DNA of 47,345 nt from Allokutzneria sp. NRRL B-24872. Its GTDB lineage: Bacteria; Actinomycetota; Actinomycetes; Mycobacteriales; Pseudonocardiaceae. The stretch spans positions 1 to 47,345 of the forward strand of contig NZ_MUMH01000058.1 in the NCBI RefSeq assembly GCF_002155965.1, in the 5' to 3' direction. Positions within the stretch are counted from its first letter, which is position 1. Each line of letters opens with the position of its first letter. The notes beneath the pieces were generated by a model, which did not search any database, was not told the DNA's origin, and saw only the letters and a list, made by a program, of their open reading frames with translations. A program made the translations under genes and the position numbers. Shown here in pieces: positions 728-47,345 of this stretch.

Positions 728-3700
728 TCACAGGCCGTCGATCCAGTCGCTGATCGCCGACGCGGTCTGGCTGGAGTACTCCTCCAGCATCGAGAAGTGG
801 TTGCCCGGCACGTCGACCACGTCGTGCGGGTACTCCCAGAAGGAGCGCCAGTCCTCACCGAGCGCGCGCATCGAGCCCTGCGACAGCGGTTCGGTCGCGC
901 GCACCAGCAGCGTACGCGTGTCGATCTCGTCGGGGCCCCACTTGCCGAAAAGTGTGAGATACCAACCCATCGCCGACAGGCGGGCGTCGTCCATGGTGAC
1001 GAAAACGCCCTCGCGCTCGACCATCCCGTCCATGAGGGACAGACCGAACTGGTTGATGAGGTTGCTCTTCGGCGTGTAGGTGTCCACGAGCACGACACCG
1101 GCGGGCCGCTCCCCCACGCTCTCCAAGTAGCCCGCCGCGGCGTGCGCGAACCAGCCGCCGGCCGAGGAGCCCAGGAGCACGATCGGCGCGCCGTCGGCGT
1201 CACGGCGGACGGCCTCGGCCTGCGCCTGGACCACGGCGGCGATGTCGGTCGGCAGGCTCTCGCCGCGGTTGAAGCCGGGCACGGCGAGCGCGGAAACGTT
1301 GCGCTGGCCCCGGAAACTCGCGGCGAAGCGCGCGTACTGGTGGATACCGGCGACCGCGAGGCAGGAGGAGAAGCAGTAGATCTTCTTATCCGCCTCACCG
1401 CGCGAGAGCAGCACGGGCTTGGGCATCTGCTGGAGCTTGTCCAGGTCGTCGGAGCCGGTGAAGCTCGGGCGCAGCGCGGCGGCCGCCCGGAGCAGCTCGA
1501 AGATCTCCGCCCACTTGCCAGTCTGGAAAGCCTCAAGGTAGAGCGACATGAGCGTCGTCCCACCAGTGTCCTTGGTGGACGGTGTGGCGGCAGCCTCCGA
1601 GGTAGGAGCCACATTCCCCAGTTCGCCCAGCAGGTGCGCGGCCAATGCGGCGGGGTCGGCGTGGTCGAAGACCAGCGTCGCGGGCAGCCGCAGACCGGTC
1701 GCGGTGGCCAAGCGGTTGCGCAGCTCCACGGCGGTCAGCGAGTCGAAGCCGGAGTCGACGAACGCGTGGTCCGCGCTGATCGCCGAAGCGTCCGCGTGGC
1801 CGAGCACCGTGGCCACGTGCTCGCGCACAATGCCCAGGACCGTGCTCAGGCGCTGGTCCTCGGACAGGGAAGCCAGCTTCTGCGCGAGCCCACCACCAGA
1901 GGCGGCACGGGCCTTCGCCGCCCGCCGAGCCGGGACCTTCACCAAGCCGCGCAACAACAACGGGGCGGAGCCGGAGGCCGCGTTGGCGCGCAACGAGTTC
2001 ATGTCCAGGCGCATCGGGATGACGACGCCCTCACCCAAACCCAAAGCGGTGTCGAACAGCGAAAGCCCTTGCGCGGTGGACAACGGCGCGATGCCGGAGC
2101 GGTTGCTGCGGCCGGTGTCGGCCATGCTGCCTTCGCTCGCCCACACGCCCCACGCCAGCGAGATCACGGGGCGGCCCTGCTTGCGCAGGCTCTGCGCGAA
2201 CGTGTCGAGGAAGGTGTTGGCCGCCGCGTAGTTGCCCTGCCCCGCGCCGCCGAGCACACCGGCGGCGGAGGAGAACAGCACGAACGCGCTGAGGTCCATG
2301 TCCTTGGTCAGCTCGTGCAGGTTGACCACGGCGTCGACCTTCGGCTTCAGCACCGTGTCGATGCGCTCCGGGGTCAGCGAGGCCATCGTGCCGTCGTCGA
2401 GCACGCCAGCGGTGTGCACGACCGCCGCCAACGGCCGGTCCAAGCCGGTGATCAGCGCGGCCAACGCATCCCGGTCAGCGGCGTCGCACGCTTCAACCGA
2501 AACTGAAACGCCTTCAGCGGCAAGGGAATCCCGGAACTGCTCGGCACCTTCGGCGGCGAGACCCCTGCGGCTGGTGAGCACCAGGTGCTGCACGCCGTGC
2601 TCGGTGACGAGGTGCTTCGCGAGCGCCTTGCCGAGCGAGCCGGTCGCGCCAGTGATCAACACGGTGCGATCGGCGGGGAACTCCACGGCCGACAGGTTGT
2701 CCGGCACGGCGACGCGAGCCAGCCGCGGCGTGTGCGGCACGGCGGCGCGCACGGCGAGCTGCGGCTCGGCGATCGCGAGGATCGTGGCGAGAGCGTTGTA
2801 GCTCGTGGGGTCGTCGTCGATGTCCACGATGCCGACGCGGTCAGGCATCTCCGACTGCGCGGACCGCAGAAGCCCCCACAGAGCGGAGTTCGCCAGGTCG
2901 GTGACCTCGTCGTCGTCGGAGGCCTGAACGGCGCCCTGGGTGACGAAGACCAGCCGCGAGTCGCTGTAGCGGTCGTCGGCGAACCACTGCTGCACAAGCT
3001 CCAGAGCGGCGGCCGTCGTCGTGCGCGCGGCGGTGGGGATGCTGCCGGAGATCTGTCCACAAGGGACGAGAACGACGCCGGGCGGCGAGGTTCCGGTCGA
3101 GATCGCTCCGGCGAGGGAATCGAGATCCGCGTAGGACTCGACGTGCACGCCCGCGCCGTCCAACGCCTCGGTGATCTTCAGCTCGTCCAGGCCGACGAGA
3201 CCGGCCCGGCGAAGCGGAGTGGAACCGACGGTGATCGCGTTCCAGTCGAGCCGGAACAGCGACTCGTGCAGGTTGGTCGGAGCAGCGACCGAAGTGGTGG
3301 TGGAAGCCGCCATCTGCCGCAGCACCAATGCTTCCACGTCGGCGACGGGGTTGCCCTCGGCGTCGGCGATGGTCAGCGTGACCGAGTCTCCGCTGGCGCG
3401 CGCGAGGCGGACGCGGACCTCCTCGGCACCGGAGGCGTGCAGGCTGACGCCGGTCCACGAGAACGGCAAGCGCCCACGGGTCGGGTCCTCGCCCGGGTCG
3501 AGCAGCGAAGCCCCGAGGGCGATCGGGTGCAGGGCTGCGTCGAGCAGCGCCGGGTGCAGGCCGAAGGACGCGGCGTCCTCGCGCTGCTTGGTCGGCAGAG
3601 CGACCTCGGCGTACACCTCGTCGCCCTTGGCCCACGCGGCGCGCACGCCCTGGAAAGCCGGGCCGTAAGCGAAACCGTTGCTGGCGAAGCGCTCGTACAG

Positions 3701-46254: not shown

Positions 46255-47345
46255 GTGACCGAGACTTCGACCCACTCCGCCGTAGCGCTGCGCACCGCGG
46301 ACGCCACCATCGCGCTGCGGATCGCCGAATCCGCGCTGACCGTCGACGGCCGCACCTCACTCGTTGACTTCCGCACCTGGTTCACCGACTGCGGCACCCG
46401 CAACTACACCGAGGTGGACCGGGTCCCGCTGGACCGCCTCGCGAACTGGTCGGCCGATCCGGTCACGGGCAACATCGGACACTCCAGCGGCAAGTTCTTC
46501 GTCGTGGAGGGCCTGGAGATCGAGCGCCCCGGGCACTGGGTCGAGCACTGGGTGCAGCCGATCATCAACCAGCCGGAGATCGGCATCCTGGGCATCGTCG
46601 TCAAGGAGTTCGACGGCGTCCTGCACTGCCTGATGCAGGGCAAGGTGGAGCCCGGCAACTGCAACGGCGTGCAGCTCTCGCCGACCGTGCAGGCCACGCG
46701 CAGCAACTACACCCGCGTGCACAAGGGAAAGCCGGTCCCCTACCTCGAGTACTTCATGGAAACCAAGCAGCACAAGGTGATCGCCGACGTGCTCCAGTCC
46801 GAGCAGGGCTCGTGGTTCTTCCAGAAGCGCAACCGCAACATGGTCGTCGAGGTCACCGAGGACGTCGAGCTGCTCGAAGACTTCTGCTGGCTGACGCTCG
46901 GCCAGCTGCACCAGCTGCTCCGCGAGGACGACCTGGTGAACATGGACGCGCGCACCGTGCTGTCGTGCCTGCCGTTCTCCGGCACCGACCTCGCGACGCT
47001 GCTGCCCGACACCGAGCGCGACGCCTTCACCACCTCGATCATGCGCTCCTGCACCGAGAGCGAGGGCGCGGTGCACACCACCGACGAGATCCTGAGCTGG
47101 ATCACCGGTGCCCGCACCCGCCACGACATCACCGCGAACCGCGTCCCCCTCAAGGGGATCGACCAGTGGAAGCACACCGACGCCGGTATCTCCCACGAGA
47201 CCGGCCGCTTCTTCAGCGTGATCGGCGTCGACGTGCGCGCCGGCGGCCGCGAGGTCCTCCAGTGGTCCCAACCGATGCTCGAGCCCAGCGGCGACGGCCT
47301 CTCCGCGTTCCTGGTCAAGCGCTTCGGCGGCGTCCTGCACGCCCT
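46255..47345 (+). CDS. NDP-hexose 2,3-dehydratase, C-terminus cut by window edge
   Basis: Removes the 2-hydroxyl of dTDP-4-keto-6-deoxyglucose by 2,3-elimination, committing the pathway to a 2,6-dideoxysugar. The GTG start follows AAGGA by eight bases. About 363 residues are present; the family is usually near 460-480. The protein has the family's internal duplication: HWVQPIINQPEIGILGIVVK with VLHCLMQGKVEPGNCNGVQL in the first half, and LQWSQPMLEPSGDGLSAFLV with GGVLHA, at the window end, in the second. KRFGGV corresponds to KEFDGV. A separate 3-ketoreductase is normally needed after this enzyme and is expected beyond the right edge. Confidence 0.95.
   Translation, partial: MTETSTHSAVALRTADATIALRIAESALTVDGRTSLVDFRTWFTDCGTRNYTEVDRVPLDRLANWSADPVTGNIGHSSGKFFVVEGLEIERPGHWVEHWVQPIINQPEIGILGIVVKEFDGVLHCLMQGKVEPGNCNGVQLSPTVQATRSNYTRVHKGKPVPYLEYFMETKQHKVIADVLQSEQGSWFFQKRNRNMVVEVTEDVELLEDFCWLTLGQLHQLLREDDLVNMDARTVLSCLPFSGTDLATLLPDTERDAFTTSIMRSCTESEGAVHTTDEILSWITGARTRHDITANRVPLKGIDQWKHTDAGISHETGRFFSVIGVDVRAGGREVLQWSQPMLEPSGDGLSAFLVKRFGGVLHA

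What the first reader, a model, noticed from the sequence alone, without database searches (positions are those of the whole stretch)
728..47345. Elaiophylin-type macrodiolide cluster deduced from domain logic
Domain order, AT motifs, KR types and dead domains read from the sequence predict an acetate-started octaketide with 2,4-diene, 6,8,10-trimethyl, 7,9,13,15-oxygenation, 11-ketone and a 14-ethyl branch. Each position agrees with the elaiophylin monomer, including the dead module 3 KR (C11 ketone) and the C15-OH needed for the hemiketal. The protein arrangement (loading+1+2, 3, 4, 5+6, 7+TE) and the L-2,6-dideoxysugar genes also fit. The PE/DUF3558 genes point to a Pseudonocardiales host, while elaiophylin is best known from Streptomyces. 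A simple 16-membered monolactone through C15-OH would use the same chain and cannot be ruled out from sequence.
Basis: partly seen in the sequence, partly recalled or inferred. Interest (0 to 1): 0.8.

Follow-up and report, generated by a model that had tools for sequence, protein, structure and literature searches.

The report
Elaiophylin-type cluster with aminosugar genes
A soil actinomycete outside Streptomyces carries the assembly line for the antibiotic elaiophylin, but its sugar genes point to an amino sugar in place of the usual one, so it probably makes an undescribed elaiophylin relative.

Summary
The window is 47,345 of the 47,493 bases of one contig of an Allokutzneria genome. All five PKS proteins match the confirmed elaiophylin/pteridic acid PKS of Streptomyces iranensis in order, domains and nearly all motifs (58-65% identity). 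The terminal thioesterase lies in a 23-row clade (100/99) with S. iranensis and its kin. A macrodiolide is well supported.

The sugar assignment is not. Elaiophylin clusters use an aldo/keto reductase (ElaC) for 2-deoxy-L-fucose. The Allokutzneria cluster lacks it and has instead a DegT aminotransferase nearest to sugar 3-aminotransferases, beside the ElaJ-like glycosyltransferase. Of 20 genomes searched that hold this TE, 7 have the DegT orthologue and the other 13 the ElaC orthologue, with no overlap. The epimerase also points to an aminosugar. Predicted product: elaiophylin bearing 3-amino-2,3,6-trideoxy-L-hexoses (L-daunosamine or its 4-epimer), calculated [M+H]+ 1023.636.

The three Allokutzneria genomes searched also carry a paralogue of the last PKS protein with a replaced AT, possibly an alternative terminal module. 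No product has been measured.

The parts
29111..42070 (-). PKS protein A (ElaA/PtaA-like): KSQ-AT-ACP loading module, module 1 (KS-AT[ethylmalonyl]-DH(dead)-KR-ACP), module 2 (KS-AT[malonyl]-KR-ACP)
   Evidence: Pfam; motifs; 59.7% identity over 4237 aligned residues with S. iranensis
24350..29101 (-). PKS protein B: module 3 (KS-AT[methylmalonyl]-KR(dead)-ACP)
   Evidence: Pfam; 57.7% identity with S. iranensis
25223..25225 (-). KR3 catalytic Ser replaced by Ala (FSA in place of FSS, 13 residues before the Tyr): ketone kept at C11
   Evidence: alignment; same change in the MAG; catalytic role of this position recalled
35819..35821 (-). DH1 catalytic Asp replaced by Gly (HPALLG): C15-OH kept
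   Evidence: alignment; catalytic role recalled
16755..21743 (-). PKS protein C: module 4 (KS-AT[methylmalonyl]-KR-ACP); start probably GTG near 21596
   Evidence: Pfam; 61.1% identity with S. iranensis; start judged by eye
6791..16792 (-). PKS protein D: module 5 (KS-AT[methylmalonyl]-KR-ACP) and module 6 (KS-AT[malonyl]-DH-KR-ACP)
   Evidence: Pfam; 61.7% identity with S. iranensis
728..6778 (-). PKS protein E: module 7 (KS-AT[malonyl]-DH-KR-ACP) and terminal thioesterase
   Evidence: Pfam; 64.8% identity with S. iranensis
731..1501 (-). terminal macrodiolide-type thioesterase domain (GSSAGG; GNHF)
   Evidence: 23-row clade with the S. iranensis ela/pta TE, support 100/99
3..731 (-). type II thioesterase, cut by the contig start
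   Evidence: Pfam; 55% identity with the S. iranensis TEII
42584..43459 (+). glucose-1-phosphate thymidylyltransferase (RmlA/ElaR-like)
   Evidence: 74% identity with G1028; orthologue table for G429
43472..44464 (+). dTDP-glucose 4,6-dehydratase (RmlB/ElaQ-like)
   Evidence: 74% identity with S. iranensis
44519..45100 (+). dTDP-sugar epimerase, nearest solved relative PCZA361.16 (EvaD, name recalled; 235 bits against 191 for NovW)
   Evidence: Pfam; PDB search
45168..46121 (+). dTDP-hexose 4-ketoreductase (ElaD-like)
   Evidence: 47% identity with S. iranensis; Pfam of the G429 orthologue
46159..47345 (+). dTDP-hexose 2,3-dehydratase (ElaB/EvaA-like), runs off the window and the contig end (47493)
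   Evidence: Pfam family search; the only PDB hit of the G429 orthologue is EvaA, 476 bits
21797..24284 (.). about 2.5-kb stretch with a DUF3558 gene (22480-23469, minus) between PKS B and C, absent from the same place in G429 and G463
   Evidence: blastn; repeats; Pfam

Best explanation
The cluster makes a C2-symmetric elaiophylin-type macrodiolide. Five PKS proteins build an octaketide from acetate, one ethylmalonyl, three methylmalonyl and three malonyl units. The dead DH1 and KR3 leave the C15 hydroxyl and C11 ketone that close to a hemiketal, and the terminal TE joins two chains head to tail and cyclises them (inferred from the ElaTE of the literature). A glycosyltransferase then adds a sugar at C13. 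That sugar is most likely a 3-amino-2,3,6-trideoxy-L-hexose (L-daunosamine, the 3-amino form of 2-deoxy-L-fucose, or its 4-epimer L-acosamine), not 2-deoxy-L-fucose. Proposed route: RmlA, RmlB, 2,3-dehydratase, DegT 3-aminotransferase, EvaD-like 5-epimerase, 4-ketoreductase. Shown here: the genes, their synteny, the TE clade and the DegT/ElaC exclusion. Inferred: the reactions, the product and the C4 configuration.
For: PKS: order, domains, AT motifs and KR types agree module by module with S. iranensis, apart from an odd AT7 motif (IAAH) and LGD for LDD in KR1 of S. iranensis; that cluster was confirmed in vivo (PMC10652019, section 10 and passages read). TE: 23-row clade, 100/99; in 392 Streptomyces genomes, 10 have a TE at 66-71% identity and no other listed match exceeds 53%. 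Supply genes ccr and 3-hydroxybutyryl-CoA dehydrogenase stand in a row with DegT and the ElaJ-like GT in G429; in this genome ccr-3HBD-DegT is on contig C467 at 92% DNA identity with the GT next to it. Sugar: DegT scores best against 7b0d (342 bits), 2oga (288; DesV as recalled) and QdtB (270), against 135 for 2po3 (DesI as recalled). ElaC-type AKR is absent from the window, C467 and the G429, G463 and G1028 cluster regions, apart from generic AKRs at 28-30%. Of 20 genomes searched with this TE, 7 have DegT at 75% or more and the other 13 ElaC at 77% or more. DegT adjoins the GT in Allokutzneria and a MAG, and the 2,3-dehydratase in three Streptomyces. Epimerase: PCZA361.16 (EvaD, name recalled) best for Allokutzneria and G1028, NovW best for S. 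iranensis.
Against: No product, expression or enzyme assay. In this genome DegT, GT and ccr lie on another contig (C467) whose own order changes at a 63-bp repeat, so linkage to the PKS is shown only in G429, G463 and G1028. The 2,3-dehydratase serves both routes, and the 4-ketoreductase is equally far from both types (46-47%). DegT stands in different places in Allokutzneria and in Streptomyces. Four of the 7 DegT genomes have a more distant AKR (56-61%) elsewhere; a gene at 56-59% is also in all 13 ElaC genomes, so it is probably a separate, widespread one, but it could in principle reduce C3. Other ketoreductase families (such as GFO/IDH/MocA) were not searched for genome-wide. S. boncukensis has two DegT genes, and which belongs to its ela cluster is not shown. 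EvaB or DnmJ, the best-known 3-aminotransferases of this route, could not be compared; DegT passed no NCBIfam cut-off.
Confidence: 0.7

Rival explanations
1. Ordinary elaiophylin: the sugar is 2-deoxy-L-fucose; a 3-ketoreductase is supplied from elsewhere in the genome and DegT serves another pathway.
For: PKS and five sugar genes match the ela cluster; in S. iranensis too the sugar genes lie on both sides of the PKS. G429 has an AKR at 59% identity elsewhere.
Against: DegT runs in a row with ccr, 3HBD and the GT; exclusion 7 against 13 of 20; epimerase nearest to PCZA361.16/EvaD; G000 and G463 have no AKR match at E <= 1e-60.
Confidence: 0.17
2. A 16-membered monolactone through the C15 hydroxyl, glycosylated with the same sugar.
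For: The nearest solved TE is FluC (195 bits), of a monomeric ring former as recalled; no ela-clade TE appears among the solved structures found.
Against: The TE is in one clade with the S. iranensis ela/pta TE at about 70% identity; TEs listed for erythronolide, narbonolide and tylactone synthases score 121-146 bits.
Confidence: 0.06
3. The main product is a monomeric spiroketal of the pteridic acid kind, released unglycosylated.
For: S. iranensis makes pteridic acids and elaiophylin from one cluster (PMC10652019, passages read).
Against: Sugar genes and GT are kept in the three Allokutzneria genomes; in S. iranensis both products occur together, so this would be a co-product rather than a rival.
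Confidence: 0.05

Closest known systems
Elaiophylin / pteridic acid cluster (ela, pta) of Streptomyces (DSM 4137, S. iranensis)
   Same: Five PKS genes in the same order, the same modules, AT types and KR types (but for an odd AT7 motif and LGD in KR1 of S. iranensis), inactive DH1 and KR3, TE clade, type II TE, RmlA/RmlB/2,3-dehydratase/epimerase/4-ketoreductase, ElaJ-type GT, ccr and 3-hydroxybutyryl-CoA dehydrogenase
   Different: No ElaC reductase, a DegT aminotransferase instead; epimerase nearer to PCZA361.16/EvaD than to NovW; other lesions in KR3 and DH1; gene order of the sugar part; host outside Streptomyces
Epivancosamine / daunosamine type aminosugar cassettes (EvaA-EvaE, Dnm; names partly recalled)
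   Same: 2,3-dehydratase whose only solved relative found is EvaA, epimerase nearest to PCZA361.16 (EvaD), a 3-aminotransferase-type DegT and a 4-ketoreductase
   Different: No C-methyltransferase (EvaC) or N-methyltransferase among the 20 proteins scanned in and beside the G429 cluster; serves a macrodiolide
Streptomyces G1028, S. sp. t39 and S. boncukensis clusters (no study of them sought by name)
   Same: Same TE clade, same DegT (75-76%) beside ela-type sugar genes
   Different: GT, ccr and PKS of G1028 are closer to S. iranensis than to Allokutzneria; DegT stands beside 2,3-dehydratase, in G1028 and t39 also beside RmlA

Membership tests
Elaiophylin-type macrodiolide PKS (ela/pta) | Five PKS genes: loading+1+2, 3, 4, 5+6, 7+TE, collinear with the monomer | tested here: met
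   layout of the known cluster from S. iranensis DNA, PMC10652019 section 10 and PMC6691879 section 14
Elaiophylin-type macrodiolide PKS (ela/pta) | AT pattern malonyl / ethylmalonyl / malonyl / 3x methylmalonyl / 2x malonyl | tested here: met
   motifs HAFH, TAGH, HAFH, YASH x3, HAFH x2; meaning of motifs recalled
Elaiophylin-type macrodiolide PKS (ela/pta) | Inactive DH1 and inactive KR3 | tested here: met
   Asp to Gly in DH1, Ser to Ala in KR3; the lesions differ from those of S. iranensis; inactivity itself is inferred
Elaiophylin-type macrodiolide PKS (ela/pta) | Terminal TE of the ela clade | tested here: met
   23-row clade 100/99; the clade's place among other TEs is flagged as unsure
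Elaiophylin-type macrodiolide PKS (ela/pta) | TE dimerises and cyclises the monomer | not testable with these tools
   needs purified TE and a thioester substrate
Elaiophylin sensu stricto (2-deoxy-L-fucosyl) | ElaC-type reductase with ElaB, ElaD, ElaI, ElaQ, ElaR (gene roles from PMC9228677, passages read) | tested here: not met
   ElaC orthologue absent from window, C467 and the G429 and G463 regions; no match at E <= 1e-60 in G000 or G463, a 59% AKR outside the cluster in G429
3-Amino-2,3,6-trideoxy-L-hexose cassette (Eva/Dnm type) | 2,3-dehydratase, sugar 3-aminotransferase, 5-epimerase, 4-ketoreductase | tested here: met
   by homology only; DegT on C467 in this genome
3-Amino-2,3,6-trideoxy-L-hexose cassette (Eva/Dnm type) | DegT aminates C3 (not C4) | tested here: inconclusive
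   2oga/DesV 288 and QdtB 270 bits against 135 for 2po3/DesI (DesV and DesI recalled); below every NCBIfam cut-off
3-Amino-2,3,6-trideoxy-L-hexose cassette (Eva/Dnm type) | Configuration at C4 (daunosamine or acosamine) | not testable with these tools
   4-ketoreductase is 46-47% identical to both types

The most novel reading that the evidence does not exclude
Allokutzneria makes aminosugar elaiophylins, and the aminosugar is the older state of the family: the DegT type is found on both sides of the first split in the TE tree, so ordinary elaiophylin arose once, when ElaC replaced DegT in one Streptomyces lineage. In addition, the genus keeps a second, unlinked terminal protein (E') with a near-identical docking helix and a similar KS but a replaced AT (CAGH motif, nearest to AT3), so one assembly line has two exits and can give C2-H and C2-alkyl products.
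Probability: 0.25. Interest if true: 0.75.

Novelty: new variant of a known kind. Interest (0 to 1): 0.6.

Why it matters
The pta/elaiophylin gene cluster family was reported as restricted to Streptomyces (PMC10652019, passage), and the 2019 review names deoxyfucose-type sugars or none on the monomers (PMC6864862, sections 4 and 15). A basic amino group on each half would change solubility and charge, and perhaps activity, of a compound class with antibacterial and anticancer activity. It gives a one-gene test (DegT against ElaC) of how a glycosylated antibiotic changes its sugar, with two natural endpoints. The E' paralogue would make an exchangeable terminal PKS module testable in a natural system.

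Tried and rejected
Monolactone through C15-OH: set aside because of the TE clade, not excluded. DUF3558 gene as part of the pathway: set aside, since the stretch is missing from the same place in G429 and G463. The aldo/keto reductase at G429 5278-6189 as the missing 3-ketoreductase: set aside, about 30% identity to ElaC and best model a general oxidoreductase, below its cut-off. The MGT-type glycosyltransferase next to TEII as the biosynthetic GT: set aside when the ElaJ-like GT was found beside DegT. My first ORF picker had missed that GT, the G463 DegT and the AKR and 2,3-dehydratase of S. iranensis; six-frame searches then showed them. Apparent AT replacement in the last module of Streptomyces sp. 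t39: looks like an assembly artefact, since the frame breaks off inside the AT. Docking as proof that E' follows protein D: not usable, since the start helix of protein C is also close to that of E (by eye). Literature: searches for elaiophylin with aminosugar terms, with aminotransferase, and macrodiolide with aminosugar terms and for Allokutzneria (25 of 43 papers listed) showed no aminosugar elaiophylin in their listings; they cover an open-licence library only, and I opened five papers in all.

Rows left out: L117 was asked for but not held, so 20 of 21 genomes were searched. G848 was searched but its TE is not in the tree. The genome-contig scan kept the best 80 of 89 relatives. Genomes are samples of larger groups.
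Full report
What was given. I checked the observation, then the interpretation, and then looked at what lies beyond the window.

Where it is. The window is bases 1-47345 of contig C430 (47,493 bases) of an 8.19-Mb assembly in 475 contigs. Genomes G429 and G463 are in the same genus. A contig equal in length to G463:C11, with 98% TE identity to the window, is Allokutzneria sp. 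A3M-2-11 16. Allokutzneria belongs to Pseudonocardiaceae.

The PKS. ORFs and Pfam domains give five PKS proteins on the minus strand: A (loading, M1, M2), B (M3), C (M4), D (M5, M6) and E (M7, TE), followed by a type II TE. I compared them with the S. iranensis cluster, which PMC10652019 confirmed in vivo for pteridic acids and elaiophylin (section 10 and passages read). Identities are 59.7, 57.7, 61.1, 61.7 and 64.8% for A to E, with the same order. Motif alignments agree module by module: KSQ; AT motifs HAFH, TAGH, HAFH, YASH, YASH, YASH, HAFH, HAFH; LDD or W type of each KR; intact DH6 and DH7. The exceptions are on the S. iranensis side: an odd AT7 motif (IAAH) and LGD for LDD in KR1. The two dead domains are dead in other ways than in S. 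iranensis. In Allokutzneria KR3 the catalytic Ser is Ala, while S. iranensis has lost the Asn (also stated in PMC10652019 and, for Streptomyces sp. M56, in PMC6691879). G1028 KR3 keeps the four residues, so its inactivity is not shown by them. DH1 in Allokutzneria keeps its His motif and has Gly for the Asp; S. iranensis and G1028 have lost the His. The MAG shares the Ser-to-Ala change.

The thioesterase. In 392 Streptomyces genomes (a sample), 10 have a TE at 66-71% identity to the window's, and no other listed match exceeds 53%. A scan of genome contigs gave names: 11 Streptomyces loci at 65-71%, among them S. iranensis and S. violaceusniger, and a MAG at 76%. In a tree of 89 TEs, 23 rows form a clade with support 100/99 and a stem of 0.62: the window and its Allokutzneria kin, the MAG and these Streptomyces. 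The program warns that the place of this clade beside two long Amycolatopsis rows may be false; its unity is not touched by that. ElaTE ligates and cyclises two monomers by an iterative mechanism (PMC4504003 passages; PMC6864862 section 15, both reporting Zhou 2015). A macrodiolide is therefore the likely release product.

Beyond the edges. In G429 the region upstream of the sugar genes holds, in order, a LuxR-type regulator, an ABC transporter, a histidine kinase, a response-regulator-like ORF (by eye), crotonyl-CoA carboxylase/reductase (594.6 bits, cut-off 378.55), 3-hydroxybutyryl-CoA dehydrogenase, a DegT aminotransferase, and a glycosyltransferase 53% identical to that of S. iranensis. 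G463 has the same row. In this genome ccr-3HBD-DegT is on contig C467 at 92% DNA identity, with the GT next to it. C467 follows the ela region of G429 and G463 up to about 16.9 kb and then the E' locus, which lies elsewhere in both relatives. Between the two lies a 63-bp sequence that recurs at two more places on C467, near 15.1 and 16.1 kb, the first matched in both orientations. This may be a rearrangement or a false join; I cannot tell.

The sugar. PMC9228677 (passages read) assigns ElaR, ElaQ, ElaB (2,3-dehydratase), ElaC (reductase), ElaI (epimerase), ElaD (4-ketoreductase) and ElaJ (GT) to 2-deoxy-L-fucose. In S. iranensis an aldo/keto reductase of 328 residues stands between the 4-ketoreductase and the 2,3-dehydratase, which fits ElaC. 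In Allokutzneria these two genes are neighbours (window 46121 and 46159) and the AKR is absent. DegT is nearest to 7b0d (342 bits), 2oga (288; DesV as recalled) and QdtB (270) among solved structures; 2po3 (DesI as recalled; listed as 4-dehydrase) scores 135. Over 20 genomes that hold a TE of this clade (21 asked, one not held), the DegT orthologue at 75% identity or more is in 7: three Allokutzneria, S. boncukensis, S. sp. t39, G1028 and the MAG, where it is partial. The other 13 have no DegT match at E <= 1e-80, and these 13 have the AKR at 77% or more. No genome has both. Four of the 7 (G429, G761, G1028, G1082) have a more distant AKR at 56-61% elsewhere, but so do all 13 of the others (56-59%), which marks it as a separate gene. 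DegT is on the same stretch as the PKS in G429, G463 and G1028; in the other four it adjoins a GT or a sugar gene of this type (G000 on C467). The epimerase gives an independent sign: PCZA361.16 (EvaD as recalled) is its nearest solved relative in Allokutzneria (235 against 191 bits for NovW) and G1028 (280 against 182), while in S. iranensis NovW is nearest (214 against 203). The epimerase and 2,3-dehydratase of G429 are closer to G1028 than to S. iranensis (63 against 55%, 58 against 55%), although the seven other non-PKS proteins compared and the five PKS proteins are slightly closer to S. iranensis. I conclude that the sugar is probably a 3-amino-2,3,6-trideoxy-L-hexose. C4 stays open: daunosamine would be the exact amino form of 2-deoxy-L-fucose.

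History. On the TE tree the DegT type is found on both sides of the first split of the clade, and the ElaC type is one group (94/86). The fewest changes over 19 scored rows is one. The simplest reading is that the aminosugar is older. Against it: two of the forks that matter have modest support (94/66 and 94/86), and DegT stands in different places in Allokutzneria and in Streptomyces, so two gains are possible.

A second terminal protein. The three Allokutzneria genomes searched hold E', a one-module PKS with a TE 67% identical to the window's. None of seven neighbouring proteins scanned in G429 is a PKS. It has the docking helix, KS (80% to E), DH, KR, ACP and TE of protein E, but the AT falls to 31%. 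Among the ATs of the window and S. iranensis, that AT is nearest to AT3 of protein B (63-66%), and it has the motif CAGH. dN/dS between species is 0.16-0.18, against 0.08-0.10 for E, so it is under constraint. One DH motif residue differs (Gly to Glu), and the start helix of protein C is also close to that of E, so docking alone does not name its partner. It may serve as a second exit adding a branched unit at C2; 2-methyl-elaiophylins are known from Streptomyces (PMC6864862 section 4). This is inference.

Verdict. I rate it a new variant of a known kind.

Noticed in passing
G000:C467:19656-25829 (-), loci L074/L075; G429:C1:2088549-2094668 (L071:549-6668); G463:C4:31549-37590: E': stand-alone one-module PKS with ela-type TE, KS 80% identical to protein E but AT replaced (31%; nearest AT3 of protein B, motif CAGH); in the 3 Allokutzneria genomes searched, dN/dS 0.16-0.18. 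Possible alternative terminal module.
   Followed up: partly
window 21797-24284: About 2.5-kb stretch with a DUF3558 gene, a 62-nt direct repeat pair 1.8 kb apart and an HAD-like fragment (by eye) between PKS B and C; missing from the same place in G429 and G463. Insertion or assembly effect not settled.
   Followed up: partly
G000:C467 about 16,870-17,130: Contig changes from the ela upstream region to the E' locus around a 63-bp dispersed repeat: rearrangement or false join.
   Followed up: partly
G429 L069:6560-7804 (-) and G463 equivalent: Macrolide-family (TIGR01426, MGT) glycosyltransferase convergent to the type II TE; 95% identical between the two genomes; best match in G000 only 34%, where the contig ends inside the type II TE. 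Possibly self-protection.
   Followed up: no
G761:C653:2525-3640, G1028:C1:2141756-2142859, G1082:C221:26690-27802: The three DegT-type Streptomyces carry a second DegT (68-72% identity), beside an epimerase (G1028, t39), a 4-ketoreductase (G1028) or an RmlA (S. boncukensis): perhaps a second aminosugar locus.
   Followed up: no
S. iranensis (L213), S. violaceusniger (L119), S. sp. NEAU-Y11 (L123), S. physcomitrii (L120), last module AT: AT7 motif is odd (IAAH, VASH, VAAH) in these four ElaC-type clusters but HAFH in Allokutzneria, the MAG and G1028; may relate to known 2-methyl-elaiophylins.
   Followed up: no
S. iranensis L215:9898-11100 and G1028 L196:951-2366: A KS III-like gene accompanies these Streptomyces clusters; no match in the 80-kb G429 or G463 cluster region.
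   Followed up: no
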